Shown here: positions 1,090 to 22,042 of the stretch, piece after piece
How positions within the stretch are numbered: position 1 is the first letter of the stretch
Layout: the number at the start of each line of letters is the position of its first letter
From: a virus
Virus record (IMG/VR): IMGVR_UViG_3300042549_003682
Span: 1 to 26,731 of that record
Length of the DNA stretch: 26,731 bases
Direction: 5' to 3' (one strand)
Position numbers and translations under genes: made by a program
Notes under the pieces: generated by a model
What the model saw: only the letters and a program-made list of their open reading frames with translations
Databases searched by the model: none
What the model was told of the DNA's origin: nothing

Positions 1090-4000
1090 ATGCCAAGTTG
1101 GAAAAAAGTCATAGTTAGCGGCTCAGACGCTGCTTTAAATTCTCTTACCGTTACAAACGGAATCACAGGTTCTTTATTTGGAACTGCTTCATATGCTACT
1201 AGTGCTTCTCAAGCAATAACAGCCTCTTACGCGAATTTTGCCTTAACAACATCTAATTCTCAAAATGCTCAAGATGTTTTAATATATGTTAAAAACGTAA
1301 CTGGAGCTCAAATCAATAAAGGAAAAGTAGTAAGAATATCAGGAGCAACAGGTGATAATGCTTTAATATCAACTGCTTCATACGAAAATGATCCAGTTTC
1401 TGCTAACACTTTAGGTATTACTAATCAAGACATTCCTCATGATAGTTTTGGATATGTAATAACAGAAGGTACATTAATAGGAATAAACACAAATGCATTC
1501 GTAGCAGGACAATTACTTTATTTAGGAGCAGCAGGATCTATAATAGGAACAGCACCAGTAGCACCATTACATGCTGTAAGATTAGGACAAGTACTAAGAG
1601 TACAAACTAATAACGGTTCTATGTATGTCCGTATTGATAACGGATATGAATTAGGGGAATTACATGATGTAGTAGATACTACTACAACTTCATCATTTGG
1701 AGATTTATTAGTAAAAAGTGGAAGTGTTTGGATTAATTCTAAACAATTAACAGGATCTTATGGACTAACAGGATCTTTAAACGCGACCTCATTTACAGGA
1801 TCTTTATTTGGAACTGCTTCATATGCTACTTCTGCTTCTCAAGCAATAAGTTCATCATTTGCTAGAAATGCTTCAAGTTCATTATACTCTTTAACATCAT
1901 CTTATTCTGATAATGGAATAAATGCTATACCTCAATTGGAGTATAATAATATTGATAGAACCATTTGGAATAATGGTAAAGGTAACATTGATACTAATCT
2001 TTCATATGGTCCTAAAGCTTTATCAAATAATACTACAGGAACTTATAATATAGCTATAGGGCCTAGTGCTTCAAATTCTAATACTGAAGGTGATGGAAAT
2101 ATCGCTTTAGGAAATGATACTTTATGGCGTAACACAACAGGAAATACTAACTTAGCATTAGGTAACCAAGCCCTGCAAAATCTCCTAACTGGAGATGAAA
2201 ATGTAGCTGTAGGAAATAGTACTCTTTTTATATTAGATGATGGTGATAACAATATAGCTTTAGGACGAAGTGCGGGTATTCATCTTGATGGTAATTCATC
2301 AAATAATGTCATTATAGGATATTCTGCGGGCCCTTCTACTCCAACAGTTGAAAGTAATAAATTATATATAGCATCAGGTTCAGGAACTCCATTAATTGGT
2401 GGGGATTTTGTTGCTAAAACTGTAACAATTTCAGGTTCATTAAATGTACGTGGAACATTAACAGGTTCTTCAGCTCAATTAACAGGTTTAACAAGTACTT
2501 CTCAAACCCGTATAGTTGTATCAGACACTTCAGGTAACTTATCATATAATACAGCTCTTGGTCTTCAAGGAGTACAAGGTGTTCAAGGAATACAAGGATT
2601 ACAAGGAGTACAAGGTTTACAGGGAGCACAAGGAGTTCAAGGAGTACAAGGAGTACAAGGAGTACAAGGAGTACAAGGTGTTCAAGGTTTACAAGGAGCG
2701 CAAGGTTTACAAGGTGCTCAAGGTTTACAAGGTGCACAAGGATTACAAGGTGCACAAGGAGTTCAAGGTGTTCAAGGTCTTCAAGGAGCACAAGGTTTAC
2801 AAGGTGCTCAAGGAGTACAAGGAGTTCAAGGAGGTCAAGGTACAACAGGGGCTCAAGGAACAGATGGTTCATTTGGTGGCGCAACTTTTGATTACACATA
2901 CGATACAACAACAACCGCAGCTGATCCTGGTCAAGGAAAAGTTCGTTTAAATAACGCTACCGAAAATGTAGCAACAGAAATATACATTGACTCATTAAAT
3001 GATCAAGGTACAGACATTTCAGCATTTTTAACTACAATAGATAGTGTAACATCTTTAATTAAAGGGTATGTTAGAATAGCTAATAGAACAGATGCAACAC
3101 AATTTTTATTATTCCAGATCTCAGATCTTACTAATAATACAGGATGGTGGACATTAGCTGTAACTAATCAAGCTTCTTCAGCTACATCACCTTTTACAAA
3201 TTTAGAAGATATAATAATCTCATTTGTAACAACAGGGGATAAAGGAACTCAAGGTGCACAAGGTGTACAAGGAGTACAAGGTTTACAAGGTGCTCAAGGT
3301 TTACAAGGTGCTCAAGGAGTTCAAGGAAATATTGGAACACCATCAACAGTTCAAGGTCCACAAGGTCCACAAAGTGCCCAAGGTACTCAAGGTGCTCAAG
3401 GTTTACAAGGTGCTCAAGGAGTTCAAGGAAATATTGGAACGCCATCAACAGTTCAAGGTCCACAAGGTCCACAAAGTGCCCAAGGTACTCAAGGTGCTCA
3501 AGGAGTACAAGGTGTTCAAGGGATTCAAGGAAATATTGGAACACCATCAACAGTTCAAGGTCCACAAGGTCCACAAAGTGCCCAAGGTACTCAAGGTGCT
3601 CAAGGAGTACAAGGTGTTCAAGGGGTTCAAGGAGTACAAGGTGTTCAAGGGGTTCAAGGGGTTCAAGGTACAACAGGTACTTTATCTTTAACAGGTACAA
3701 CAAATAATGGTGTAATAACATTAAATGGTTCTGCGCCAAATGCTACAGTAGAATCAAATTTAACATTTGATGGTACTACTTTATTATTAACAGGTTCATC
3801 AACAATAGTAGGTACTAATTCAATACTTACACTAAACAACTCAGGCTCATTAGGGGCAGGACAAAGTATATTAAAATCACTAGATAGCGCGTGGTCTGGT
3901 AAATCATTAGGAGCTACCACTTTTAATATTATAGCAACTGATGCTGGTAGTACTCAAGTAGGAGGTATTAATTATGCAAAAGCTTCAAGTAATTCAACTA

Positions 4001-6750
4001 ATGTATCATTCATGTATGATAGTACAGCAACAGCAGCTATATATATCTCAGGTTCAGGTGATGTAGGTATTAAAACATCTACTCCTACCTCAGCTTCCTT
4101 AACAGTAGGTGGAAATGTTTGGGCTACTGCTTTTACAGGATCTTCAGCTCGATTAACAGGTTTAGCCAGTACCTCTCAAACCCGTATAGTGGTATCAGAC
4201 ACTTCAGGTAATTTATCATATAATACTGCTTTAGGTCTTCAAGGAGTACAAGGGGTTCAAGGTGCTCAAGGAGTACAAGGAGTACAAGGAGTACAAGGTC
4301 CACAAGGTGCTCAAGGAGTACAAGGAGTACAAGGTCCACAAGGTGCTCAAGGAGTACAAGGAGTACAAGGTGTTCAAGGGGTTCAAGGGGTTCAAGGGGT
4401 TCAAGGTAGACAAGGTACAACAGGTACTTTATCTTTAACAGGAACAACAGATAATGGTTTATTAACATTAAATGGTTCTTCACCTAACGTTTCTGTAGAA
4501 TCAAATTTAACATTTGATGGTACTACTTTAATACTAGTAGGAAAACTAGAAAACGGAGATTCAGGATGTGTAGCTACAGGAACAGATTCACATGCTGAAG
4601 GTAGAACAACTGTAGCTAGTGGACAATGGACACATACAGAAGGATATCAAACTTTAGCTGTAGCAGATAATTCACATGCTGAAGGGTGGCAAACTCATAC
4701 TGTAGGAGGAGCCTCACATGCAGAAGGATATCAAACATCCGCTTCAGCGGCTTATTCACATGCTGAAGGTTATTTAACACGAGCTTCACAAGAAGCTGCA
4801 CATGCGGAGGGATTCTATACAATAGCATCAGGACGATTTTCACATGCTGAAGGTTATTTAGCTATAGCTATAAGTTCAGGTTCTCATGCAGAAGGATATG
4901 GTGGGTTTGCTATAGGAGATTGGTCTCACGCTGAAGGATTACAAACATCTGCTAGTGGAGTATATTCACATGGAGAAGGATATAGAACACGTACAATAGG
5001 AACCGCAGCTCACTCTGAAGGACAATTTACTACAGCTTCAGGAGATTCTACACATGCTGAAGGAGATTCTACAAACGCAATAGGACAAGCATCTCACGCT
5101 GAAGGATCATCTGCTATATCATTTGGTGGTGGTTCACATGCTGAAGGAAATCAGACAATATCATCAGGATCTAACTCACATGCTGAAGGAAGAGGTTCAG
5201 TTTCAGTAGGAACTTATTCACATGCTGAAGGTGAATTTACATATGCTGAAGGTGGTGCTTCACATGCCGCTGGATTATATACATCCGCTTCTGGTAATTA
5301 TCAAAGTGTAATAGGAATGTATAACCAACCTAATACTAATCAAGGAGCCTTTATTGTAGGTAATGGTACAGGTACAGGAGCAAGATCAAACTTATTATAT
5401 GCTTCAGGTTCACAAGTTCAAATAACAGGATCTTTAGTAGTATCAGCAGGTATAACAGGTTCATTTTCAGGAACTGTAACTAACGCTACAAATGTAGCAG
5501 TAACAGACACAACTTCTGGTACAGGTCCTTACTATCTAATGTTTGCGGATGGTACTACAGGTAATAGAGCAACTAGAGTAGATAGTTCAACATTAACATT
5601 TAATGCTACCTCAAATACTTTAACTGTACCAAATTTAGCAGGTACGGCTTCTTGGGCTACAACAGCTTCTCATGCTTTAGGTGCAGTTTCTTCTGGAATA
5701 ATACAACAAGGTGGTAAATCTTATGTTGCTCATGACTTTAATAGTTATCCAAATGTTTATGATACTACGTTTATAAACCCAATTGGTTCAACAAACCTTC
5801 CAACAAATATGAGTTCTGCTATGTCTTACAGATTCATAATGGGTGGCGGTGATACCGCAGCAAGAGGTGTTGATCTTGTTGTAGCAGCTGAATCAAGTGG
5901 TAACATGTACATGAGAGAAAGATCTATAGGTACTTGGAGTAGAATGTTACACTCAAACAATTTTAATTCATACTCACCAACACTTACAGGAACTGGAGCA
6001 TCAGGTACTTGGGGAATAGGAATATCAGGAAATGCTGCTACTGCTACATCAGCTTCTATGGCATCTACTGTTACTGTAAATAATCAAGATACAACTCCTG
6101 TAACTTATTACTTAACTTTTGTAGGGACAACAGCAGGAAATGCTTCATTAGGTGTAGACTCAACAACACTTACTTATTACCCCGCAGATGGAACATTTAC
6201 TGCTCCTATTGTAAATAGTGCAACAGGTGTTAGAGGAGGAAATGGTGCAGCGGCTACCCCTGCATTCTCATTCTCAGGAGACACTAATACAGGTATGTAT
6301 AACATATCAGCAGATGTATTAGGATTTGCTACAAATGGAGGAGAAAGATTAAGAATAACAGCTGCTGGAGCTATGGGATTAGGTGTTAACCCAACTAATA
6401 CTTCAGGTAGATTTGAAGCTTCAAATGATATAGTAGCATTCTCTACTTCAGATAAAAGATGGAAAAATAATATTGTAAAAATAGATTCTCCATTAGAAAA
6501 AATATCTCAAATTAGTGGAGTTGAATTTGATTGGATAGAAGACGAACCATTCCATGGTAATAAAGGACATGATGTAGGAGTTATAGCTCAAGAAATTGAA
6601 CTAGTAATTCCAGAAGCAGTTCAGACTAGAGAAAGTGGAATGAAAGCTGTTCAATATGATAAAATTATTCCTTTATTAATAGAGTCTATTAAAGAACAAC
6701 AAAAACAAATAGATGAATTAAAAGAATTAGTAAATAAATTAACAAAATAA
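1090..6750 (+). CDS. Giant tail fibre/adhesin with collagen-like and SHAEG repeats and C-terminal S74 chaperone
   Basis: A 1886-residue fibre protein. In order: an N-terminal [15 protein letters not shown] start; Ala-Ser-Tyr-Ala spacers; a compact domain at about 61-195 ([12 protein letters not shown]...); NIALGxxxL-type repeats at about 320-432; collagen-like GxQ blocks at 491-593, 716-863 and 1049-1112; 17 SHAEG-type repeats at 1167-1404; and a knob-like region at about 1534-1650 ([13 protein letters not shown]). The C-terminus (1787-1886) is a peptidase S74 / endosialidase-type intramolecular chaperone: SDKRWKNNI begins at Ser1787 with Lys1792 five residues on, matching the Ser-Lys pair used for self-cleavage in that family, then [10 protein letters not shown] and a terminal coiled coil ([18 protein letters not shown]). 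Such chaperones trimerise fibres and are then cut off. It probably forms a long trimeric receptor-binding or side fibre. The shaft architecture is clear; the receptor is unknown. Confidence 0.9.
2560..2868 (+). repeat. Collagen-like GxQ repeat block 1
   Basis: 103 residues of Gly-X-Gln triplets ([12 protein letters not shown]), encoded by degenerate 9-nt units such as GGAGTACAA and GGTGTTCAA. Almost every third-position residue is Gln and proline is absent, unlike typical collagen. Synonymous variation between units argues for selection on the protein rather than very recent slippage alone. Confidence 0.9.
3235..3678 (+). repeat. Collagen-like block 2 with a 102-bp threefold repeat
   Basis: Gly-X-Gln triplets are interrupted three times by a non-collagen insert ([19 protein letters not shown]) starting at 3325, 3427 and 3529, exactly 102 nt apart. 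The copies are nearly identical in DNA, which suggests recent tandem duplication. Each insert breaks the triplet register and could form a flexible kink. Confidence 0.85.
4234..4425 (+). repeat. Collagen-like GxQ repeat block 3
   Basis: About 64 residues of GVQ/GAQ/GPQ triplets ending GRQGTTG. The flanks ([20 protein letters not shown] before, [12 protein letters not shown] after) closely copy those of blocks 1 and 2, so the whole flank-collagen-flank module was duplicated within the gene. Confidence 0.85.
4588..5301 (+). repeat. 17 tandem 14-residue SHAEG repeats (42-bp period)
   Basis: Seventeen consecutive units with consensus S-H-A-E-G-x-x-T-x-A-S-G-x-x. Every unit is exactly 14 residues, with no insertion or deletion. 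Variants include THTEG, SHGEG, AHSEG and SHAAG. The pattern resembles the left-handed beta-roll repeats of YadA-type trimeric adhesin heads. The DNA of units is diverged, so the array is not a fresh expansion. Confidence 0.9.
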
Positions 6751-7173: not shown

Positions 7174-7944
7174 ATGCCTAGAATAGCAGTTACAAATAAT
7201 GTAGGATTAGCAAGTTACTATAATACTTTTTATAGTGCGCCTACAACTAATATAAGTACAAATACTACTTTAGGGTCATCAGAATATACTTGGCCCCCAA
7301 ATTATACTGGGGCTAATTATAGACTTGGAAATTTATATGGAGGTGGTTATTATTTATTTTATTTGAGAGTGAACGCTGTATCTAATGGTAATGTGAGTAT
7401 AACTTATCCTTGGTCACAAGGGCCTAGTACTCAAGTAGGTACTTTAAGACAAGCTTTTACTGTCGCTTATTCCTATATAACAGTATCCGCCTCAGCTAAT
7501 TCTGGATATACTTTTGGAGGATGGTATGATGCTTCTACAGGAGGAAATTTTATTACAGGTACTAATCCTTATAATGTATCAGTACTTGATACTTATTATA
7601 ATGCAGAGTGGTTCGCTAGATTTACAGCAGTAACAACGACTACTACAACTACCACTACTACAACCACAACTACGACTACTACTACAACTACTACAACCAC
7701 TACAACAACTAGTGGATGTGTTTATACTCCATTCTTAGGATATGATTCTAGTAATGAGTTTGATGCTTGTGCTTTCAGCATTTTTGTTAATAGATACACA
7801 GATACTGGAGATATATCTACAGCTACATTTATATATGGTAGCGCAGCATGTGCTACATCAGCTATAGCAGGATGGTATTCAGATGGAACTGTCGCTAGAT
7901 TTTGGGATGGTACTGATTTTACAGGTTTCCCAACAAGTTGTTAA
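7174..7944 (+). CDS. Virion-type protein with InlB-like repeat, 26-Thr linker and Cys-containing C-terminal domain
   Basis: A 256-residue protein with three parts. Residues 1-100 are Tyr/Asn/Ser-rich and probably beta-stranded. Residues about 101-151 (ITVSASANSGYTFGGWYDA...YNAEWFARF) resemble the InlB B-repeat / Listeria-Bacteroides repeat, whose hallmark is GYxFxGWY. Residues 154-179 are 26 consecutive threonines. Residues 180-256 form a small domain with four cysteines, ending FPTSC. It is 4 nt from the preceding gene and is the last gene before a promoter-like element, so it probably belongs to the giant-fibre unit. There is no obvious signal peptide, consistent with a virion decoration or adhesion protein rather than a secreted one. 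The function is unknown; the Thr tract would be a natural O-glycosylation site. Confidence 0.6.
   Translation: MPRIAVTNNVGLASYYNTFYSAPTTNISTNTTLGSSEYTWPPNYTGANYRLGNLYGGGYYLFYLRVNAVSNGNVSITYPWSQGPSTQVGTLRQAFTVAYSYITVSASANSGYTFGGWYDASTGGNFITGTNPYNVSVLDTYYNAEWFARFTAVTTTTTTTTTTTTTTTTTTTTTTTTTTSGCVYTPFLGYDSSNEFDACAFSIFVNRYTDTGDISTATFIYGSAACATSAIAGWYSDGTVARFWDGTDFTGFPTSC
7633..7710 (+). repeat. Run of 26 threonine codons
   Basis: All four threonine codons (ACA, ACT, ACC, ACG) are mixed in no fixed order, so this is not a simple trinucleotide microsatellite. It forms a linker between the InlB-like domain and the C-terminal domain. Confidence 0.95.
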
Positions 7945-10034: not shown

Positions 10035-11705
10035 ATGATAAATAATCTAGTAAAAACAATCCTAGAACAAGGAGGATCTATACATCCACTTTTAATACCT
10101 TCAGAAGATACTAACGGTACTGGATTATGTAATCCTTCTATTTTTATAGATCAAGAAAGAATCTTTGTAAATTTAAGACATGTTCAATATACTATGTACC
10201 ATAGTGAAAATGAACAAAAACATCCAAGCAGATATGGTCCTTTATCTTATATTAATCCTGAAGATGATATTACTTTAAGAACTAAAAATTTTATTTTAGA
10301 GTTAAATGAGGATCTATCAATAAAATCTTCAAATTTAACTGATACTACTAAATTAGATGTCCCACCTATATGGGAATTTATAGGTTTAGAAGATGCAAGA
10401 ATAGTTAAGTGGGATAATAAATGGTACCAAACAGGTGTAAGAAGAGACACTACAACTAATGGTCAGGGTAGAATGGAACTTTCAGAGATAGAAATGTCTG
10501 AAGAAGGAGTAAAAGAAATTTCAAGATGGAGAATACCTGCTCCAGGTAATAATGATACTTATTGTGAAAAAAATTGGATGCCTGTTAATGATATGCCTTA
10601 TCATTATGTTAAATGGACTAATCCAACAGAAGTAGTAAAAGTAGATCCTATTAATAAAACTTGTGAAACTGTAGTTTTAAAAACTCAAAAACTTAATATA
10701 AATAGAGATTTAAGAGGTGGTTCTTCTATTATTAAATGGGGTGATTATAGAATAGGAATTACTCATGAAGTAGATTTTTGGTATAGTGAAACAGAACATA
10801 AAGATTGCTATTATTATCATCGTTTTATAATATGGGATAAAGATTGGAATATAGTTAAACATTCTGATTGTTTTAATTTTATGACTTCTAGAGTAGAATT
10901 TAGTTGTGGTTTAATTGAACATAAAAATGATTTTTTAATAACATTTGGTTTCCAAGATAATGCGGCTTACATTTTAAGAGTACCTAAAAATACCTTTGAA
11001 AATATTATAGGATTTAAAAATGGATTTAATTGGGGAGAATTGCCAGTAGAATTAATAGGAATAATATCAGAAGAAATTTTTCAAGATAAATTATATGAAA
11101 AATATAATGAAGTTAAAGAAGGAGATATAGTAATGGATATTGGAGCTAATGTAGGAGCATTTTCATATTCTATTTTAGATAAAAATCCTAAAAAAATATA
11201 TTCTATTGAACCCTCTAATACTTTAATTGATACCTTAAAATCAAACCTTCAAGATAAAGCTGTTATAATCAATAAAGCTATTTCAGAATCTACTGGAACT
11301 AAAAATGAAATTGAAGTAGGAGTTCATATCTATAATAATGAAGGATCTCAATATGAAACTATCACTTTTAAAGATTTAATTAAAGAAAATAAGATTAAGA
11401 AAATAGATTTTTTAAAGATAGATTGTGAAGGAGGAGAATATGATGTTTTTAATAATGAAAATAAAGATTGGATCTTAAAAAATATAAGATATATAACAGG
11501 TGAATGGCATTTATGGGGTACTCCTGATAGTTTAAATAAATTTAAACATTTTAGAGATATTTATTTAACTGAATTTACTGATTATAAAGTATTTTCTAGA
11601 GATAATGAAGATATTACTGATAGAATGTTTGATGATGATTATTTATTAAATTATTCTCATGGTCTTACTCATTCCGCTCAAGTATTAATTTATATTAAAA
11701 ATTAG
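10035..11705 (+). CDS. GH130-like beta-propeller fused to FkbM-family methyltransferase
   Basis: A 556-residue two-domain protein. Residues about 1-340 show a repeated pattern like the GH130/GH43-type five-bladed propeller: NPSIF (33-37) with NLR, GLEDARI (117-123), EKNWMP (178-183), RGGSSI (227-232) and VEFSCGL (287-293) followed by ITFGFQDNA. Residues about 350-556 are an FkbM methyltransferase: SAM-binding VMDIGANVGAF (366-376), acidic IEPS (391-394) and the family's DFLKIDCEGGEYDVF (458-472). FkbM enzymes O-methylate sugars or small molecules, so the fusion suggests a glycan-binding or glycan-cutting module coupled to methyl capping. The methyltransferase call is strong; the propeller is by pattern only, and its catalytic status cannot be judged. 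It is 2 nt upstream of the next glycan gene. The 36-nt gap before it is the only gap of 33 nt or more without ATATTTAT. Confidence 0.75.
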   Translation: MINNLVKTILEQGGSIHPLLIPSEDTNGTGLCNPSIFIDQERIFVNLRHVQYTMYHSENEQKHPSRYGPLSYINPEDDITLRTKNFILELNEDLSIKSSNLTDTTKLDVPPIWEFIGLEDARIVKWDNKWYQTGVRRDTTTNGQGRMELSEIEMSEEGVKEISRWRIPAPGNNDTYCEKNWMPVNDMPYHYVKWTNPTEVVKVDPINKTCETVVLKTQKLNINRDLRGGSSIIKWGDYRIGITHEVDFWYSETEHKDCYYYHRFIIWDKDWNIVKHSDCFNFMTSRVEFSCGLIEHKNDFLITFGFQDNAAYILRVPKNTFENIIGFKNGFNWGELPVELIGIISEEIFQDKLYEKYNEVKEGDIVMDIGANVGAFSYSILDKNPKKIYSIEPSNTLIDTLKSNLQDKAVIINKAISESTGTKNEIEVGVHIYNNEGSQYETITFKDLIKENKIKKIDFLKIDCEGGEYDVFNNENKDWILKNIRYITGEWHLWGTPDSLNKFKHFRDIYLTEFTDYKVFSRDNEDITDRMFDDDYLLNYSHGLTHSAQVLIYIKN

Positions 11706-13195: not shown

Positions 13196-15640
13196 ATGAG
13201 TACAATCAGTACCTCAGGTATATCTCCTAGTCAGGTAATTAGAGCAGAACATGTCTTAAGAGTAATTAATGCTTTAAGCAATACTGCTAATAATGATATT
13301 TTAATAACAGGTTCTTTAACTGTAACAGGTTCAACAGCTTTATCAGGATCACTTAGAGTAACTGGAGGTATTACAGGTTCAGTATTTGGTACTTCTTCTA
13401 ATGCTACTTCAGCATCTTATGCTTTAATTTCTACAAACGCTGCTACTGCTTCATATGCGGTAACTGCATCTTATGCTTTATCTGCTTCATATGAGATAAA
13501 TTATGAAACTTCAAGTTCATACGCTAATGAAGCTACAACTGCATCATATGCTTTAACTTCATCATATGCTATAAGTTCTACAAGTGCCTCGTATGCTTTA
13601 ACTTCATCATATGCTATAAGTTCTACAAGTGCTTCTTACGCTTTATCTTCATCTTATGCTTTAAGTTCAACAAACGCATCAGCTGCTACAAGTGCATCTT
13701 ATGCTTTAAATTCAACATCAGCTTCATATACTGTAAGTGCGTCTTACTCAACAGTAGCCCAAACATTATTAGGGTCAGTAACAAGTGCTTCTTATGCTTT
13801 AACATCATCTTATGCTTTAAATAGTCCTGGTGGAGGAGGAACAACTAATACTGGATCACTTTTATTAACAGCTTCTGCTACTAATAATGTAATTACATTT
13901 ACAAAAGGTGATGCTAGTACATTTAATATTACTGTAAATACAGGATCAGCTTCTTCTATTAATACAGGATCATTTGCTACAACAGGATCAAATACTTTTA
14001 GTGGATCTCAAAATATTACAGGTTCAGTTTCAATTACAGGTTCACAAAATATAACAGGATCTGTAAATTTAAACGGAGGTACTTTTACAACATTAGGTGG
14101 GGGTTCATTAATGAGTGTATATTCTAATATCATTACTATTGAAAACCAGGGTTCACCATTTGATTATACTCTTTTAGGACAAGGGGTTTTAACATATAAC
14201 TCAGCATCTAATTCACAACAACTTTTATTCCCTGCTTCTTTATCTACAGGTATAAAAGCTATTACTTTACCTAATGATACAGGAACAGTAGCTTTAACTT
14301 ATAATACAGTTACTACATCATCATTTAATTCATTTACTTCATCATATAATAATAAAACAGGATCATTTGCTACAACAGGTTCAAATACCTTTATAGGTAA
14401 TCAAACAATTAGTGGATCTACTTTAATTTCAGGTTCATTGAATAATGGACTAAGAAACATAGCATCAGGATTAAATTCACATGCTGAAGGTGTTAATACT
14501 ATAGCTTTTGGAGAATATTCACATGCTGAAGGTTCAGGTTCTATAGCTTCAAGTTCATTTTCACATGCTGAGGGAGAAGGTACAATAGCTGATTATGGTT
14601 CACATGCGGAAGGATATTATACTATAGCTCAGTTTGGAGGATGGTCACATGCTGAAGGTAGATATTCAATAGCTCGAGGCGAAGCAAGTCACGCTGAAGG
14701 AAATGTAACAATAACATCAGGATCATATTCACATGCTGAAGGAGCTCAAACTCTAACTATAGGAGTATCATCACATGCTGAAGGATATCAAACAACTTCA
14801 TCAGCTGATTATTCACACGCTGAAGGTAGAGAGACTAAATCTACAGGACAGTACTCACACGCTGAAGGTAGATCTACAACATCAACTGGTGATTACTCAC
14901 ATGCTGAAGGTCAAAATACTACATCTACTGGAAATTATTCACATGCTGAAGGATATCAAAGTACATCTACTGCGAATTATTCACATGCTGAAGGAAATCA
15001 AACATCAGCTGCTAGTTCTTATTCACATGCTGAAGGAAGTTTTACTATTACTAATGGTAACTATTCACATGCTGAAGGAACTCAAACTGTAGCTAATGGT
15101 CAAGCATCACACGCTGAAGGATACATCACAAACACATCTCTTACAGCAGATTATTCACATGCTGAAGGAACTCGTACATTAACAATAGGACAATATTCAC
15201 ATGCTGAAGGATATTTTGCAACTTCCTCAGGTCTATATTCTCACGCTGAAGGTGGTAGAACTCATGCTGTAGGAGAAGGAGCACATGCTGAAGGATCAGG
15301 TTCTATAGCTTCAAGTTCATATTCACATGCTGAAGGTTGGGGAACAGTAGCATCAGGTCAATATCAACATGTTCAAGGAACTTATAATATATCTTCTTCA
15401 AATCAAGGAGCTTTTATTATAGGAAATGGAGCTGATAATTCTAATAGATCAAACTTAGTATATGCATCAGGTTCTGAATTTCAAGTAACAGGATCAGTTA
15501 GTATTACAAGTGTATTAACTTTAGCACCAAATGATCCATTACCAACAAGTCAACCAACAGGTTCAATATCTGTATCAGGATCAGGAGCTGATTGTAAACC
15601 ATATTTTTATAATGGTACTACATGGACTTCATTAATATAA
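13196..15640 (+). CDS. Second SHAEG-repeat tail fibre/adhesin protein
   Basis: An 814-residue structural protein. Residues about 61-212 are Ala-Ser-Tyr-Ala-Leu type Ser/Thr-rich spacers, including a 15-residue direct duplication. Next comes a beta-rich region with GSxxITGSxNITGS repeats (about 255-300), a strand-rich connector, then 21 SHAEG repeats (428-723). The C-terminus (SNLVYASGSEFQVTGSVSI...ADCKPYFYNGTTWTSLI) closely matches the post-repeat segment of the giant fibre at first (QGAFIIGNGADNSNRSNLVYASGS versus [24 protein letters not shown]) but lacks the S74 chaperone. The two proteins therefore share modules and probably a trimeric beta-roll fold. It is 17 nt upstream of a small coiled-coil gene. 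It could be a second fibre, a fibre tip or a baseplate-attached whisker; the role beyond virion adhesion is unknown. Confidence 0.8.
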   Translation: MSTISTSGISPSQVIRAEHVLRVINALSNTANNDILITGSLTVTGSTALSGSLRVTGGITGSVFGTSSNATSASYALISTNAATASYAVTASYALSASYEINYETSSSYANEATTASYALTSSYAISSTSASYALTSSYAISSTSASYALSSSYALSSTNASAATSASYALNSTSASYTVSASYSTVAQTLLGSVTSASYALTSSYALNSPGGGGTTNTGSLLLTASATNNVITFTKGDASTFNITVNTGSASSINTGSFATTGSNTFSGSQNITGSVSITGSQNITGSVNLNGGTFTTLGGGSLMSVYSNIITIENQGSPFDYTLLGQGVLTYNSASNSQQLLFPASLSTGIKAITLPNDTGTVALTYNTVTTSSFNSFTSSYNNKTGSFATTGSNTFIGNQTISGSTLISGSLNNGLRNIASGLNSHAEGVNTIAFGEYSHAEGSGSIASSSFSHAEGEGTIADYGSHAEGYYTIAQFGGWSHAEGRYSIARGEASHAEGNVTITSGSYSHAEGAQTLTIGVSSHAEGYQTTSSADYSHAEGRETKSTGQYSHAEGRSTTSTGDYSHAEGQNTTSTGNYSHAEGYQSTSTANYSHAEGNQTSAASSYSHAEGSFTITNGNYSHAEGTQTVANGQASHAEGYITNTSLTADYSHAEGTRTLTIGQYSHAEGYFATSSGLYSHAEGGRTHAVGEGAHAEGSGSIASSSYSHAEGWGTVASGQYQHVQGTYNISSSNQGAFIIGNGADNSNRSNLVYASGSEFQVTGSVSITSVLTLAPNDPLPTSQPTGSISVSGSGADCKPYFYNGTTWTSLI
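13550..13639 (+). repeat. 45-bp tandem duplication in the ASYA spacer region
   Basis: Two consecutive copies of a 45-nt unit (13550-13594 and 13595-13639), both encoding ALTSSYAISSTSASY, with only a few third-position changes. A diverged third copy follows. Confidence 0.85.
14477..15364 (+). repeat. 21 SHAEG-type repeats in the second fibre
   Basis: Twenty-one SHAEG/AHAEG units: eighteen of 14 residues and three of irregular length (13, 15 and 16 residues: units 3, 4 and 16), totalling 296 residues. A degenerate unit (QHVQGTYNISSSNQ) follows. Units share the DNA core TCACATGCTGAAGG with the array at 4588-5301. Confidence 0.9.
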
Positions 15641-15973: not shown

Positions 15974-18046
15974 ATGGCTGAAACATTATTATCTCCAGGA
16001 GTACTAACTAGAGAAAATGACCAATCACAGATCACACAAGGCCCTATCGTTGCAGGAGCTGCTATAGTAGGTCCTACTGTAAAAGGTCCGGTTAGAATAC
16101 CTACATTAGTTACTTCATATAGTGATTATATTAATAAATTTGGTGGTTCTTTCGTTAGTGGAGGTACTTCAAATGAATATTTAACTTCAATCTCTGCTTA
16201 TAACTACTTCCAACAAGGAGGTAATAGTTTATTAGTGACTAGAGTAGTGAGTGGAACATTTGCTCCTGCTACATCTAGTATTAATAGTGGAATTACTGGA
16301 GTTGATGGAAAATTTGCAACTGGGTCATTAAACATATCAGCTTTTACAGATTTGGATACAGGATCATTTGTAGCAATAAGATTTGCTACACCAGATATTG
16401 ATTTCTATATTGTTCCTAACCAAACAGGATATGAATTTGTTGAAAACGAAGGTTCAACAAGATTCTTTTATACTTCACTTCCTTCAGGATCTGCTTACAC
16501 ACTAGATCAATGGGGTACTAAAGTAGCTCAAACTATTAATACAGGATCTTGGGATCTTTATAATTATTTCTCAGCTAGCTATGATGTAAGTTCAAATATA
16601 TTTGCTTTCTCAGGTAGTTCAGCAGGAACAGCAGCAAACTCTTATAAAGTTTACAGAACTACAACAGTAGGTGGAGTAGGTACTTTAACTGCTAGTTTAG
16701 CTGGTGGTGCATCAGGTACTCCTTCAGTAGCATTTACTTTAGAAACTTTATCTTGGGGAGCTATTCAAAATAGTGCTGGAGCAACAGGTAATAACAATAC
16801 ATTAGTAAATGGAACTCCAGATAATGTTAGATGGGAAGTAGCAAATAGAGATACAGCAGCTGGAACTTTTAGTTTATTAGTTAGAAGAGGAGATGATAAT
16901 ATTAATTCAAAAGTAATATTAGAATCATATGCTGGATTATCATTAGATCCAAACTCTCCAAATTATATTGAAGCTGTAATTGGTAACCAATCAATTTCTA
17001 TTGATAATGGATACACAGATGTTTCAGGTGATTATACTAATAAATCAAGATATGTGAGAGTAAAATCAGTAGTAGCTCCTACACCAAATTATTTTGATAA
17101 CAACGGAGTAGCTAAATCACAATATACAGCTTCAATTCCAACAAACGCTAGTGGTTCATTCGGTGGTGCTAATGGTAATTTAGCGGCAGTATACGGTTTA
17201 TCAGATAATGACTATACATCATCATTAAATCTGTTATCTAACCAAGATGAATTTAGATACAACGTGATTACTGTACCAGGATTATGGCAATCAGCTAATT
17301 CAGCAGCTATAGGATTAATGTTAACTAATACTCAAAACAGAGGTGATGCTATCGCGGTTGTAGATTTAGTAAGTAAAGATGTTAACACTATTAACTCAGT
17401 AGTAAGCGAAGCTTTAGAAATTGATAATAGCTATGCAGCAGCTTATTGGCCATGGGTTCAAGTTAATGCTCCAAATACTGGAAAATTAACATGGGTTCCA
17501 CCATCAACAATCATACCAAGTGTTTACGCTTACAATGATAGAATTGCAGCTCCATGGTTCGCACCAGGAGGATTCACAAGAGGTGGTTTAAGTGTTGTAC
17601 AAGCAGCTAAAAAATTATCACCAGATGATAGAGATACATTGTACTTAGGAAAAGTTAATCCAATTGCTACATTCCCAGGACAAGGAGTTGTTGCTTACGG
17701 TCAGAAAACATTACAACAAAAAGCTTCAGCTTTAGATAGAATCAATGTTAGAAGATTATTAATTGAATTAAAATCATATATTGGTCAAATTGCTAACACA
17801 TTAGTATTCGAACAAAATACTTTAGCTACAAGAAATAGATTCTTATCACAAGTAAATCCATATTTAGATTCTATTCAACAAAGACAAGGATTATATGCAT
17901 TTAAAGTAGTAATGGATGAATCAAATAACACAGCTGATGTAATTGATAGAAATCAATTAGTAGGTCAGATATTTATCCAACCAACTAGAACAGCTGAGTT
18001 TATTATATTAGACTTTAATGTAACACCAACAGGAGCTACATTTTAA
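15974..18046 (+). CDS. Contractile tail sheath protein (T4 gp18-like)
   Basis: A 690-residue protein, close in length to T4 gp18 (659). The N-terminus (SPGVLTRENDQSQITQGPIVAGAAIVGPTVKGPVRIPTLVTSYSDYINKFGG) is the standard sheath handshake region. The C-terminus (ALDRINVRRLLIELKSYIGQIANTLVFEQNTLATRNRF...GLYAFKVVMDESNNTADVIDRNQLVGQIFIQPTRTAEFIILDFNVTPTG) is the conserved sheath domain. The variable middle carries the surface domains. Sheath subunits stack around the tube and contract to drive it through the host envelope, so this gene identifies the phage as myovirus-type. It has its own promoter-like element at 15934 and a hairpin terminator at 18064, and appears to be transcribed alone. The codon choice is strongly AT-ending, like its neighbours. 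Confidence 0.95.
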   Translation: MAETLLSPGVLTRENDQSQITQGPIVAGAAIVGPTVKGPVRIPTLVTSYSDYINKFGGSFVSGGTSNEYLTSISAYNYFQQGGNSLLVTRVVSGTFAPATSSINSGITGVDGKFATGSLNISAFTDLDTGSFVAIRFATPDIDFYIVPNQTGYEFVENEGSTRFFYTSLPSGSAYTLDQWGTKVAQTINTGSWDLYNYFSASYDVSSNIFAFSGSSAGTAANSYKVYRTTTVGGVGTLTASLAGGASGTPSVAFTLETLSWGAIQNSAGATGNNNTLVNGTPDNVRWEVANRDTAAGTFSLLVRRGDDNINSKVILESYAGLSLDPNSPNYIEAVIGNQSISIDNGYTDVSGDYTNKSRYVRVKSVVAPTPNYFDNNGVAKSQYTASIPTNASGSFGGANGNLAAVYGLSDNDYTSSLNLLSNQDEFRYNVITVPGLWQSANSAAIGLMLTNTQNRGDAIAVVDLVSKDVNTINSVVSEALEIDNSYAAAYWPWVQVNAPNTGKLTWVPPSTIIPSVYAYNDRIAAPWFAPGGFTRGGLSVVQAAKKLSPDDRDTLYLGKVNPIATFPGQGVVAYGQKTLQQKASALDRINVRRLLIELKSYIGQIANTLVFEQNTLATRNRFLSQVNPYLDSIQQRQGLYAFKVVMDESNNTADVIDRNQLVGQIFIQPTRTAEFIILDFNVTPTGATF

Positions 18047-18124: not shown

Positions 18125-18613
18125 ATGGCAGTATTAAACCCAAACGAAATAATGTTTACCGCTTTTGAACCAAAAGTTCAAAATAGATTTATACTATATA
18201 TTGACGGTATCCCATCATACTTAATTAAAAAAGCATCTGCACCAGGATTTGAAGCAAATGAAATTATATTAGATCACATCAATGTTTACCGTAAAGTTAA
18301 AGGTAAAGTAAGATGGAATGATATGACTTTAGCATTATATGATCCAATTGCACCATCAGGAGCTCAAACAGTAATGGAATGGGCACGTTTAGCTCACGAA
18401 TCTGTAACAGGTAGAGATGGATACTCAGATTTCTACAAAAAAGATTTAAGAATGAATATCTTAGGTCCTGTAGGGGATGTAGTTGGAGAATGGATTATAA
18501 AAGGAGCATTCGTAAAATCAGCAAACTTCGGAGAATACGATTGGTCTTCAGGAGAAGCAGCGGTAGAACTTTCAGTAACAATAGCAATGGATTATTGTAT
18601 CTTAAACTACTAA
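18125..18613 (+). CDS. Tail tube protein (T4 gp19-like)
   Basis: A 162-residue protein, essentially the length of T4 gp19 (163). It matches the gp19 family: PKVQNRFILYIDGIPSYLIKKASAPGFEANEIILDHINVYRKVKGKVRWNDMTLALYDPIAPSGAQTVMEW, with the KxxGKxxWxDxxLxLYDPI core, and a C-terminal GAFVKSANFGEYDWSSGEAAVELSVTIAMDYC. These subunits form the hexameric rings of the inner tube through which DNA passes, enclosed by the sheath encoded just upstream. It is bracketed by terminators (18064 and 18635) with its own promoter-like element at 18093. It therefore looks monocistronic, which suits a very abundant virion protein. Confidence 0.95.
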   Translation: MAVLNPNEIMFTAFEPKVQNRFILYIDGIPSYLIKKASAPGFEANEIILDHINVYRKVKGKVRWNDMTLALYDPIAPSGAQTVMEWARLAHESVTGRDGYSDFYKKDLRMNILGPVGDVVGEWIIKGAFVKSANFGEYDWSSGEAAVELSVTIAMDYCILNY

Positions 18614-18699: not shown

Positions 18700-19443
18700 A
18701 TGGAAAATCAAGTTGCAACCCCAAAATTCCCTACTGAAATGGTAGATTTACCTTCTAAAGGTCTACTATATCCTGAAGATTCTCCCTTAAGAGCAGGCTC
18801 TATTGAAATGAAATACATGACAGCTCGTGAGGAAGATATTTTAACTAACTCTAATTACATTCAACAAGGTATTGTATTAGATAAATTATTAGAATCTCTT
18901 ATTATTACTAAAATCAATTTTAAAGATTTATTAGTTGGTGATAAAAATGCTATTTTAATTGCATCTCGTATTTTAGGATATGGTCAAGAATATGAATTTG
19001 AAACTAATGGAAAAGTATATCAAGTAGATTTAACTACTTTAAAAGATAAAGAATTACCATCAGATGTAGATTATACTAATGGTAATGATTTTAATTTTAC
19101 TTTACCTGCTACTAAAGACGAAGTTACTTTTAAATTATTATCACATGGTGATGAATTAGCAATAGATCAGGAACTAAAAGGATTAAAGAAAATTAACCCA
19201 AATGGGTCACCAGAATTATCAACTCGTTTAAAATACATGATAACTTCAGTTAATGGTGATAGAGAGAAAAAAACTATTAGAGAATTTATTGATAATCAAT
19301 TATTAGCAAGAGACTCTAGAGCTTTAAGACAAGAAGTAAAAAGAATATCACCAGATATTGATTTAACTATTCAAGGTGATGGCGGGGAGGACATCGCCGT
19401 ACCAATTAATCTTAACTTTTTTTGGCCTGACTTCAACTCATAG
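18700..19443 (+). CDS. T4 gp26-like baseplate/tail assembly chaperone-type protein
   Basis: A 247-residue protein. VDLPSKGLLYPEDSPLRAGSIEMKYMTAREEDIL (16-49) is the signature of the T4 baseplate protein family that includes gp26. The middle (LLESLIITKINFKDLLVGDKNAILIASRILGYG) and the segment RDSRALRQEVKRISPDIDL also fit. It ends VPINLNFFWPDFNS; an FFWPD-like ending is what I remember from phage relatives, so this frame seems to terminate naturally. From memory, some relatives have a CxxC-type zinc site just before this ending; here that place reads QGDGGEDIAV with no cysteine. The last 68 nt overlap a second reading frame. Its location between the tube gene and the tape measure gene is where tail assembly chaperones (lambda G/GT type) usually lie and parallels T4 genes 26-51. 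Confidence 0.75.
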   Translation: MENQVATPKFPTEMVDLPSKGLLYPEDSPLRAGSIEMKYMTAREEDILTNSNYIQQGIVLDKLLESLIITKINFKDLLVGDKNAILIASRILGYGQEYEFETNGKVYQVDLTTLKDKELPSDVDYTNGNDFNFTLPATKDEVTFKLLSHGDELAIDQELKGLKKINPNGSPELSTRLKYMITSVNGDREKKTIREFIDNQLLARDSRALRQEVKRISPDIDLTIQGDGGEDIAVPINLNFFWPDFNS

Positions 19444-19693
19444 AATAAACTTATTCTCTCAAATAAATGAAATAGTATTTCATGGTAAAGGAGGATATGA
19501 TTGGAATACTATTTATAGTATGCCTATTTGGCTTAGAACTTTTACTTTTAATAAATTAAAAGAATGGTATGATAAAGAAAGTGAAGAAGCTGAAAAACAA
19601 AACAATCAATTAACCAATAAAAGTGGTAAAGAAATAGCTAGACCTGATATCCCACAATCAAGTACATATAATGCAAAAGTCCCTAAAAAATAG
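19376..19693 (+). CDS. Overlapping downstream frame, T-like extension or gp51-like protein
   Basis: An open frame in the +1 register relative to the gp26-like gene, overlapping its last 68 nt. Read alone it could begin at GTG 19376 or ATG 19379 (AAGG lies too close, 2 nt upstream), giving about 105 residues. Read through a shift at the T7 run (19417-19423) it yields a fusion ...LNFF-GLTSTHRINLFSQINEIVFHGKGGYDWNTIYSMPIWLRTFTFNKLKEWYDKE of about 330 residues. The region from FFGL onward looks like a conserved helical protein, whereas the preceding residues (MAGRTSPYQLI) look like out-of-frame translation of the upstream gene; this favours the fusion. Helical extensions of this kind bind tape measure protein during tail assembly. 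Its stop codon lies inside a hairpin terminator. Confidence 0.65.
   Translation: MMAGRTSPYQLILTFFGLTSTHRINLFSQINEIVFHGKGGYDWNTIYSMPIWLRTFTFNKLKEWYDKESEEAEKQNNQLTNKSGKEIARPDIPQSSTYNAKVPKK
19414..19426 (+). promoter_or_regulatory. Candidate programmed frameshift site (T7 run)
   Basis: In the upstream frame the codons read AAC TTT TTT TGG. A +1 slip on TTT, or a -2 slip, enters the downstream frame at GGC (19424). A -1 slip would not. The homopolymer allows tRNA-Phe re-pairing in either case. A transcriptional slip would have the same result. Confidence 0.55.
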
Positions 19694-19726: not shown

Positions 19727-22042
19727 ATGGCTGCAGATATAAATGCTTTAAATCAAGAAATTGCTGATCTTAGAAGACAACTAGGAGACAGACCTTTAAC
19801 TCCTTTTAAACCAGAAGATTTAAATAAAGCCTTATTAACAGTTAAAGCTTTAAGACAAGAATTCAGAGAATCATCTGGAGATTTAGATTATATATCTAAA
19901 AGTTTTAAAGACACTGTTAATGAAATGTCTAAGCAAAACATATATTTCAATTCTGCTAAAAAATCCATAAATAGTATATCTGATATTGCTAGACAATTAA
20001 ATGATTACAGAAGAGGAGAAAATTCTTTATCAGAAAAACAATTAAAAAATCTACAAAATCAAGCCCGAATAAAATTTGAAGAATTAAAATTATCTATAAG
20101 AAGTGGACAATTACAAGGTAAAGATCTAATAGCGGCTCAAGCTGCTTTAGATGAGCAAGAAGCCTTTAATAGAACTTTAAGTAGAACTATAGAACTTCAA
20201 GAACAAGTTAACAAAGAAATTGGTCTATTAGGAAGTGGTTTAGAAGGAGCAGGTAAATTCTTAGAAAAAATGGGATTTGCTGGTATAGCTAAACCTATAT
20301 CAGATGCTATCCAAAAAACTAAAGAGGCTAGATTACAAATAAAACTAAATCAAGACGCTATCAGTGATCTTGAAGAAGAATATAAAAACATTCCTCCTTA
20401 TGATGTCCAACGTAAAAAGGAATTAAGAGATCAAATTACTAGTTTAAAAAATCAAAATAAAGAATTAGACAAACAAGCTAATAAGTATAAAAATATAGCT
20501 GAAGCTATAAAAGAACAAGTTACTTTAACTAATATGACTGATGCCATATTAGGTAAAATGGTAAAAAGTTTCTTTGATTTAGATGAAGCTCAAGCTAAAT
20601 TTACAAATTTAACAGGGGGTCAAATCCCTTTAATGGATCAATTTAATGGTAGATTAATTACTAGTGTTGATTATATCAAAACTGCGAGTTCATTAACAGA
20701 ACAATTAGGAATGAATGCGGCTGCTGTTTTCTCTCCTGATACTTTAGCAGCGGCATCTGAAATGGTTAAATCTATGGGTATGACCCAAGAACAAGCCAAT
20801 AAAGCAGCTATGATGTCTCAAGTTAATGGGCAATCTATTGATGATATGAATAACTCTCTTAAAGAGGGTAATAAACAATATAATAAACAAAATAGATCTG
20901 CATTAGCTCAAGGAGCTGTAATGAGAGAAGTATACAATACTTCAACTGCTGTAGCAGCTTCTATGGGTAATAGTGTTAAAAGAATTGGAGAAGCTGTTCG
21001 ACAAGCAAAAGATTTAGGTCTTTCATTACAAGATGTTGAAGGTATAGCTAGCTCTTTATTAGATATTGAATCATCAATCGCTTCTGAATTTGAATATGAA
21101 GTAATTTCAGGTAAGCAATTAAATTTAGAAGCAGCTAGATATTATGCTTTAACTAATCAAACCGATAAGTTAACAAAAGAAATAGCTAATAATCAAGCCT
21201 TAGTACAATCATTTGCATCAGGTAATAGAATAGAACAAGAAGCAGCCGCTAAAGCTTTAGGAATTTCTCGTGACCAATTAGCTGAAATGTATATGGCTGA
21301 TTTGAGAAAGCAAGGACTTTCAGATAAAGCTATAGCAGATGCTATGGCTATGGATGAAATGGATGTTAAAAGATTATCTACTCAAGAAGCTATTAATACT
21401 TCTATAGCTAAAATGACAGAATTATTAGCAGGACCTGCTCAAATTTTAGCTAAAATGTTAGATAACTCTTTTGTAATGTATAGTGTGATGGGTATGATTG
21501 CTACTGTTATGGCGGTAAGTATAGCTACATCTATAGGTAAATCAGCAATAGCTTTAGCTGGTATGATTCCTAAAACTGCTACTTTATTAGGATTAGAAGT
21601 AGGTAGAGCCGCAGCTGCAGTAGCTAGTGCCAGTGCTTTAACTTTAGGTTTAGGAGCTCTAGGTATAATAGCAGGTATAGCAGCAGTTATGGCGGTAGTT
21701 AATTCAAGTACTACACCTAAAACACCATCAATAAAAGATGGTATTGTTGACCCTAAAAAAGGACCTATAATGTCTGGGGAATTTGGATCAGTTCAATTGA
21801 ATCCAAATGATAAAGCAATGTATGGAGCTGATGGTAAAATAAAAGTAGGTACTAATTTAAATCCAACCCCACAAGTAAGAACTCCTCAACAGCAAATTGC
21901 CACTCAAGCTTCACCTTCTATTGACTATGATAAAATGGCTCAAGCAATGTCTAAAGTAAGTGTTAACACTAACTTAGACGGAGTACGTGTGTCAAGTGAA
22001 TTGCAAAAAGCTCCATTAGGAATAGCTACAAGAAAAATATAA
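19727..22042 (+). CDS. Tail tape measure protein
   Basis: A 771-residue protein with tape measure features. The N-terminal half is rich in long charged helices and coiled coils (INALNQEIADLRRQLGD; DQITSLKNQNKELDKQANKYKNIAEAIKEQ). A central Ala-rich helical part follows, then a hydrophobic region at about 582-660 (VMYSVMGMIATVMAVSIATSIG...ALTLGLGALGIIAGIAAVMAVV) that fits membrane insertion on ejection. The C-terminus (GSVQLNPNDKAMYGADGKIKVGTNL) is polar. By the usual rule of about 1.5 angstrom per residue, 771 residues suggest a tail of roughly 115 nm. The location after tube and chaperone-like genes supports the call. No lysozyme or peptidase domain is apparent. It is flanked by promoter-like elements at 19703 and 22046. 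Confidence 0.85.
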   Translation: MAADINALNQEIADLRRQLGDRPLTPFKPEDLNKALLTVKALRQEFRESSGDLDYISKSFKDTVNEMSKQNIYFNSAKKSINSISDIARQLNDYRRGENSLSEKQLKNLQNQARIKFEELKLSIRSGQLQGKDLIAAQAALDEQEAFNRTLSRTIELQEQVNKEIGLLGSGLEGAGKFLEKMGFAGIAKPISDAIQKTKEARLQIKLNQDAISDLEEEYKNIPPYDVQRKKELRDQITSLKNQNKELDKQANKYKNIAEAIKEQVTLTNMTDAILGKMVKSFFDLDEAQAKFTNLTGGQIPLMDQFNGRLITSVDYIKTASSLTEQLGMNAAAVFSPDTLAAASEMVKSMGMTQEQANKAAMMSQVNGQSIDDMNNSLKEGNKQYNKQNRSALAQGAVMREVYNTSTAVAASMGNSVKRIGEAVRQAKDLGLSLQDVEGIASSLLDIESSIASEFEYEVISGKQLNLEAARYYALTNQTDKLTKEIANNQALVQSFASGNRIEQEAAAKALGISRDQLAEMYMADLRKQGLSDKAIADAMAMDEMDVKRLSTQEAINTSIAKMTELLAGPAQILAKMLDNSFVMYSVMGMIATVMAVSIATSIGKSAIALAGMIPKTATLLGLEVGRAAAAVASASALTLGLGALGIIAGIAAVMAVVNSSTTPKTPSIKDGIVDPKKGPIMSGEFGSVQLNPNDKAMYGADGKIKVGTNLNPTPQVRTPQQQIATQASPSIDYDKMAQAMSKVSVNTNLDGVRVSSELQKAPLGIATRKI

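What the first reader, a model, noticed from the sequence alone, without database searches (positions are those of the whole stretch)
19376..19443. Probable +1 or -2 programmed frameshift joining the gp26-like gene to the next frame
The gp26-like frame ends FFWPDFNS, but in the overlapping register the sequence continues FFGLTSTHRINLFSQ... for 89 codons. The two registers meet at AAC TTT TTT TGG (T7, 19417-19423). The downstream frame lacks a good start of its own. Tail assembly chaperones just upstream of tape measure genes are classically made as short and frameshifted forms (lambda G/GT, mostly -1; Mu-type -2). Here geometry excludes -1. This suggests that a T4 26-51-like gene pair is the functional equivalent of G/GT in this lineage. 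A +1 shift predicts ...NFFGL (330 aa), a -2 shift predicts ...NFFFGL (331 aa).
Basis: partly seen in the sequence, partly recalled or inferred. Interest (0 to 1): 0.75.

Follow-up and report, generated by a model that had tools for sequence, protein, structure and literature searches.

The report
Plus-one frameshift in phage tail chaperone
In a large group of tailed phages, ribosomes very probably slip one base forward at a fixed run of U to make a longer second version of a tail-assembly helper protein, a known trick done here in an unusual direction and missed in existing gene annotations.

Summary
A gp26-like gene (A, 18700-19443) and a second frame (B, 19424-19693) meet at AAC TTT TTT TGG; B is in the +1 (= -2) frame. 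It is not a homopolymer error: of 177 unique A/B junctions in related phages, 172 have B in the same frame. The site reads TTTTTTTG in 150 unique junctions and TTTCTTTG in 17. In 57, B has no usable ATG/GTG/TTG. In three exceptions (two with a gene inserted between A and B, one with a remnant), B has its own ATG and the site has decayed synonymously.

Best reading: programmed +1 ribosomal frameshifting that makes short and long forms of a tail assembly chaperone, as lambda G/GT does. Distant members fit +1 but not -2; interrupted runs argue against polymerase slippage. Cyanophage and some jumbo-phage members use -1 at U_UUU_UUC. T4 gp26 and gp51 belong to the same family, gp51 being an in-frame long form (already published, Vladimirov 2022).

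Apparently new: the +1 site, its deep conservation, the direction switch with opposite flanking-base signatures, and the natural uncoupling cases. No product has been observed, and the 2022 paper could not be read here.

The parts
18700..19443 (+). Gene A: gp26-like short chaperone (TAC-N-like), 247 aa, zero frame
   Evidence: phrog_150 'baseplate hub' E 2.4e-6; 30 of 46 aligned relatives match PF12322; model pLDDT 94.8 matches SP-15 baseplate hub E 1.7e-17 in BFVD
19414..19431 (+). Conserved shift region AAC TTT TTT TGG CCT GAC; slippery run T7 at 19417-19423, A-site codon TGG 19423-19425
   Evidence: identical 18 nt in 92 unique junctions; TTTTTTTG in 150, TTTCTTTG in 17; non-U before the run in 71 of 73 clusters
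19424..19693 (+). B: +1-frame C-terminal extension, 89 codons plus stop, making a 330 aa fusion
   Evidence: tblastn relatives; +1 frame in 172 of 177 unique junctions; dN/dS about 0.09-0.34 in six close pairs
19441..19443 (+). Zero-frame stop that ends the short form
   Evidence: a stop 5-12 codons after the first site codon in all 86 clusters
18125..18613 (+). Tail tube gene upstream (context)
   Evidence: phrog_4542 tail tube E 3.8e-22
15974..18046 (+). Tail sheath gene upstream (context)
   Evidence: phrog_23 tail sheath E 1.2e-71
19727..22042 (+). Probable tape measure gene downstream (context), 771 aa
   Evidence: position and length; no convincing family match in the window; annotated as tape measure at the same place in immuto, LIS04 and SP-15; a long ORF starts within 500 nt of B in 135 of 141 loci

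Best explanation
One reading start makes two tail assembly chaperones. Most ribosomes read A to its stop and give the 247 aa short form. A fraction pause on UUU-UUU-UGG; the P-site tRNA-Phe detaches and re-pairs one base downstream on UUU (or UUC in variants), and translation runs on in the +1 frame through B to give a 330 aa long form. By analogy with lambda G and GT, the short form would coat the tape measure protein and the long form would tie it to tail tube subunits. Shown: frame geometry, conservation of site and frame, absence of starts for B in many relatives, selection on B, membership of A in the gp26 family. Inferred: that the slip is ribosomal and +1, its efficiency, and the protein-protein roles.
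For: B in +1 in 172 of 177 unique junctions. 57 have no ATG/GTG/TTG from the upstream +1 stop to 12 codons past the site, and in 25 that stop is one codon before the site. Third bases free of coding in the B frame are fixed at the site: TTT in 85 of 86 clusters; the base before T7 is C 57, G 13, A 1, T 2, although comparable codons elsewhere end in T 74% of the time. +1 re-pairing is perfect where -2 is not: UUU_CUA (L126), UUU_CGU (L131), UUU_CGC and UUU_CAG (L236, L239). When B has its own start (L044, L086, L087) the site decays synonymously. Gene order tube - A/B - tape measure. T4 gp26 and gp51 are the short and long forms in the same family. Best solved structure matched by A, among the chains Foldseek proposed, is the HK97 tail assembly chaperone 2ob9, Z 4.9 over 84 residues (weak).
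Against: No peptide or reporter data. No stimulator found: no conserved RNA structure and no Shine-Dalgarno-like element close upstream. For T7 alone a -2 re-pairing is also perfect. B can exist as a separate protein (L086, L087), so fusion is not indispensable. TMP and tube binding are by analogy only. Unique junctions are related, so the counts are not independent.
Confidence: 0.87

Rival explanations
1. A -2 programmed frameshift, as in phage Mu: the tRNA on the second UUU slips back two bases and gives ..NFFFGL.. (331 aa).
For: Same frame outcome; re-pairing UUU to UUU is perfect on T7 and tolerable on UUUCUUU.
Against: Leaves mismatches at the sites of L126, L131, L236 and L239, where +1 to UUC is perfect. 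Assumes one mechanism for the whole family; the T7 lineage could differ.
Confidence: 0.08
2. B is translated from its own start (upstream GTG 19376/ATG 19379 here, or reinitiation after the A stop), without a frameshift.
For: A start exists upstream in the B frame in 107 of 172 junctions, with an SD-like motif in 16; B has a clear start in L044, L086 and L087.
Against: 57 junctions have no usable start; a CUG start is not conserved (at least 8 lineages lack it, e.g. L179, L192, L041, L125, L227, L229, L230). It does not explain fixed third bases at the U run or their decay once B has a start.
Confidence: 0.03
3. RNA polymerase slippage on the T run makes mRNAs in which A and B are in one frame.
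For: Homopolymer T runs are the usual substrate.
Against: 17 unique junctions have TTTCTTT, and distant members runs of 3-6 T, with the same frame relation.
Confidence: 0.015
4. Assembly or sequencing error (six rather than seven T) splits one gene.
For: Homopolymers are error-prone.
Against: 172 unique junctions from independent samples and isolates keep the same frame; TTTCTTT versions too.
Confidence: 0.005

Closest known systems
Lambda G/GT-type tail assembly chaperone frameshift (Xu, Hendrix and Duda 2004; reviewed in PMC5009743)
   Same: Two products, short and frameshifted, from a gene between the tube and tape measure genes; short zero-frame tail after the site.
   Different: Usually -1 on an X_XXY_YYZ heptamer; here +1 on UUU_YUU_UGG, and the protein is of the gp26 family.
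T4 gp26/gp51 tail assembly chaperones (Vladimirov, Gautam and Davidson 2022, cited in PMC12846349 and PMC10885494)
   Same: A and T4 gp26/gp51 fall in one family (phrog_150, PF12322); short and long forms.
   Different: T4 makes the two forms from two genes; here one gene and a frameshift.
-1 poly-U sites in TAC genes of T4-like phages and Vandenendeviridae (PMC12846349)
   Same: Slip on a U run near the end of TAC-N; downstream ORF annotated as a separate gene.
   Different: Direction -1, U before the run; here +1, non-U before the run.
+1 TAC shifts proposed in haloarchaeal myoviruses (HSTV-2, PMC5009743; HF1 group TTT-CGC, PMC7230728)
   Same: +1 at a UUU codon near the end of the short chaperone; Streptomyces phage BRock here has CTG_TTT_CGC.
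   Different: Other viruses, short UUU_CGC motif; the U7GG site is not described there.
prfB (RF2) +1 frameshift CUU_UGA
   Same: CUU to UUU re-pairing is one option at UUUCUUUGG; UUU is among the next most slippery codons there (PMC10885494).
   Different: No stop in the A site (UGG) and no close Shine-Dalgarno-like element; role is a protein ratio, not autoregulation.

Membership tests
G/GT-type tail assembly chaperone frameshift | Gene lies between tail tube and tape measure genes | tested here: met
   Tube phrog_4542 upstream; long ORF just downstream, annotated as tape measure in immuto and SP-15
G/GT-type tail assembly chaperone frameshift | Overlapping downstream frame reachable only by a frameshift, conserved in relatives | tested here: met
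   172 of 177 junctions in +1; 57 without starts
G/GT-type tail assembly chaperone frameshift | Conserved slippery site | tested here: met
   TTTYTTTG in 167 unique junctions
G/GT-type tail assembly chaperone frameshift | Both products made, in a set ratio, and both needed | not testable with these tools
   Needs proteomics and genetics
G/GT-type tail assembly chaperone frameshift | Short form binds tape measure, long form binds tube | not testable with these tools
   Analogy only
G/GT-type tail assembly chaperone frameshift | TAC fold (e.g. HK97 gp13) | tested here: inconclusive
   2ob9 is the top VIA-align row, Z 4.9, rmsd 6.1, 84 aligned; Foldseek E 2.5
gp26 family (PF12322 / phrog_150) | Sequence match of A to the family model | tested here: met
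   phrog_150 E 2.4e-6 for the window's A; PF12322 misses the window's A but matches 30 of 46 aligned relatives
T4 gp51-type long form | B homologous to the C-terminus of gp51 | tested here: inconclusive
   2 of 49 B relatives match phrog_634 (best 4.8e-4), window B none; direct hhalign to gp51 not significant, intermediate links P 2e-4 to 6e-5
Mu-type -2 frameshift | Acceptable re-pairing two bases upstream at all sites of the family | tested here: not met
   Fails in L126, L131, L236, L239; possible at T7 itself
prfB-type +1 frameshift | Stop codon in the A site and a Shine-Dalgarno-like element a few nt upstream | tested here: not met
   UGG in the A site; GGAG/GAGG only about 30 nt upstream

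The most novel reading that the evidence does not exclude
Within one homologous chaperone family the frameshift direction has switched at least twice while a U run stays at the same place, and the flanking bases set the direction: U before the run and UUC inside it for -1, a non-U before it and UGG after it for +1. T4 left the scheme by keeping two genes, and three relatives here by splitting B off.
Probability: 0.5. Interest if true: 0.68.

Novelty: new variant of a known kind. Interest (0 to 1): 0.55.

Why it matters
Programmed +1 shifts are rarer in phages than -1 shifts, and no general +1 motif is agreed (PMC10885494). A UUU_YUU_UGG site conserved over 80 of 86 sequence clusters, with phages in culture (Flavobacterium phage immuto, Microcystis phage Mel-JY01), is a ready natural series for learning how direction is programmed. 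It also corrects annotation: in these isolates, and in cyanophages ('gp51', 45 aa in S-RIM50), the long chaperone is missing and a truncated gene is listed instead.

Tried and rejected
RNA structure: single folds, z-scores over 86 clusters (mean -0.88 downstream, -0.42 upstream) and RNAalifold (no common pair) gave no stimulator. Shine-Dalgarno-like stimulator: GGAG/GAGG occurs about 30 nt upstream, too far for a +1 site of the prfB kind. Group I intron at the split loci: no Rfam match. Sequencing error: rejected by the relatives; L102 alone looks like an indel. Direct link of the window-type A or B to T4 gp51: hhalign not significant; the link runs through intermediate families. Fold search with B: no significant match (model pLDDT 76.6). 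RM378: its site fits (TTT TTT TGG), but its B is not detectably homologous, so it rests on position only. All-pairs dN/dS mixed unaligned pairs and gave no usable median; only close pairs are quoted. PADLOC on the WOR-3 copy: nothing. Literature: no report of this +1 site found in 9 searches, but the key paper (Vladimirov 2022) could not be read.

Full report
Observation. The window is a 26,731-base virus record. Gene A (18700-19443) follows sheath and tube genes and is followed, after B, by a 771 aa ORF in the tape measure position. A ends AAC TTT TTT TGG CCT GAC ... TAG; B is open in the +1 frame from 19367 to 19693.

Relatives. IMG/VR scans with A and B gave over 120 loci, and at least 594 B relatives. 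Further scans, GTDB genomes and named phages brought this to 225 loci with a complete A stop and 177 unique junctions. B is in +1 in 172. The other five: L044 and L086 (a gene inserted between A and B), L087 (a remnant of such an insert), L102 (apparent indel), L178 (contig end). Sampling favours close relatives; clustered at 80, 70 and 50% identity of A, the +1 set is 86, 50 and 10 groups.

The site. TTTTTTTG in 150 unique junctions, TTTCTTTG in 17; the 18 nt AACTTTTTTTGGCCTGAC is identical in 92. Part of this is forced by coding in two frames (CCT, GAC). The third base of codon 1 and that of the codon before it need not be, because the B frame is not read there if the slip happens on the U run. 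They are fixed all the same: TTT in 85 of 86 clusters (79% TTT elsewhere), and before the run C 57, G 13, A 1, T 2 (74% T in comparable codons elsewhere). The p-values treat clusters as independent, which they are not fully. A U there would create U_UUU_UUU, the classical -1 heptamer; avoiding it fits a site tuned for +1 (inference).

No start for B. In 57 of 172 no ATG/GTG/TTG lies between the upstream stop in the B frame and 12 codons past the site; in 25 that stop is one codon before the site. A CUG start is not conserved. B is under purifying selection (dN/dS 0.09-0.34 in six close pairs). The zero frame always stops 5-12 codons after the first site codon, as expected if a short form is also made.

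Direction. +1 against -2 was judged on the variants. UUU_CUA (LR756508), UUU_CGU (Streptococcus phage GXN1), UUU_CGC and UUU_CAG (Streptomyces phages BRock and Alone3) allow UUU to UUC at +1, while -2 leaves a mismatch. UUU_CGN is the motif proposed for +1 in HF1-group haloviruses and in eukaryotic viruses (PMC7230728). UUUCUUU and short runs argue against transcriptional slippage. So +1 is favoured, not proven, for the T7 form itself.

Natural uncoupling. In L086 a GIY-YIG endonuclease gene (PF01541 2.5e-6) sits between A and B. L087 keeps both ends of that insert (77-82% identical) with the middle lost. L044 has another insert without a Pfam match. In all three, B has an ATG and the site in A has changed synonymously: TTC TTT TGG CCA, TTC TTC TGG CCC, TTC TTC TTT CCC. 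So A's protein sequence does not need the U run, and B seems to work as a separate protein; the fusion may matter mainly for dose (inference).

Function. A belongs to the gp26 family; its best solved structural neighbour, weakly, is the HK97 tail assembly chaperone. T4 gp26 and gp51 both match PF12322, and gp51 has an extra C-terminal part that matches the small gp51 family phrog_634. Short and long forms from two genes in T4 are published (Vladimirov 2022). The link from B to the gp51 C-terminus runs through chains of modest profile matches.

Other direction. In cyanophages (52 of 54 unique junctions) and in jumbo phages Atu_ph07, XacN1, PA5oct and RAS14, B is in the -1 frame with U_UUU_UUC or U_UUU_UUU. 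On a tree of A, well-supported branches force at least two changes for the -1 label, but long branches limit confidence. The 45 aa 'gp51' of cyanophage S-RIM50 is the end of this -1 extension. -1 poly-U sites in T4-like TAC genes were already known (PMC12846349).

Verdict. A known strategy (TAC frameshift) in a known family (gp26), with a +1 site that is deeply conserved, apparently undescribed and misannotated. Novelty is limited by the published T4 work and by +1 proposals in haloviruses, and raised by the opposite flank signatures and the uncoupling cases.

Noticed in passing
L086:2357-2971; L087:2774-2967; L044:3744-4295: A GIY-YIG homing endonuclease gene (L086), its decayed remnant (L087) and another insert (L044) sit exactly at the A/B junction; the hyperconserved frameshift site may be what the endonuclease targets.
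   Followed up: partly
L234:4220-4357 (cyanophage S-RIM50): The annotated 45 aa 'gp51' is the C-terminal part of a -1 frameshift extension of gp26 at U_UUU_UUC; the same arrangement occurs in 52 of 54 unique cyanophage-type junctions.
   Followed up: yes
L230 (CP070664.1, WOR-3 bacterium MAG chromosome): Sheath, tube, A with TTT TTT TGG CCT, B and a long downstream ORF lie on a 2.8 Mb MAG chromosome: a prophage, a contractile device or a mis-binned phage.
   Followed up: partly
window 1090-6750 and 13196-15640: Two long structural proteins with QGVQGVQG collagen-like and SHAEG repeat blocks.
   Followed up: no
window 7174-7944: ORF with an uninterrupted run of more than 25 threonines.
   Followed up: no
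window 10035-11705: FkbM-type methyltransferase domain (PF05050, 1.7e-14) at the C-terminus of a larger protein, near the tail genes.
   Followed up: no
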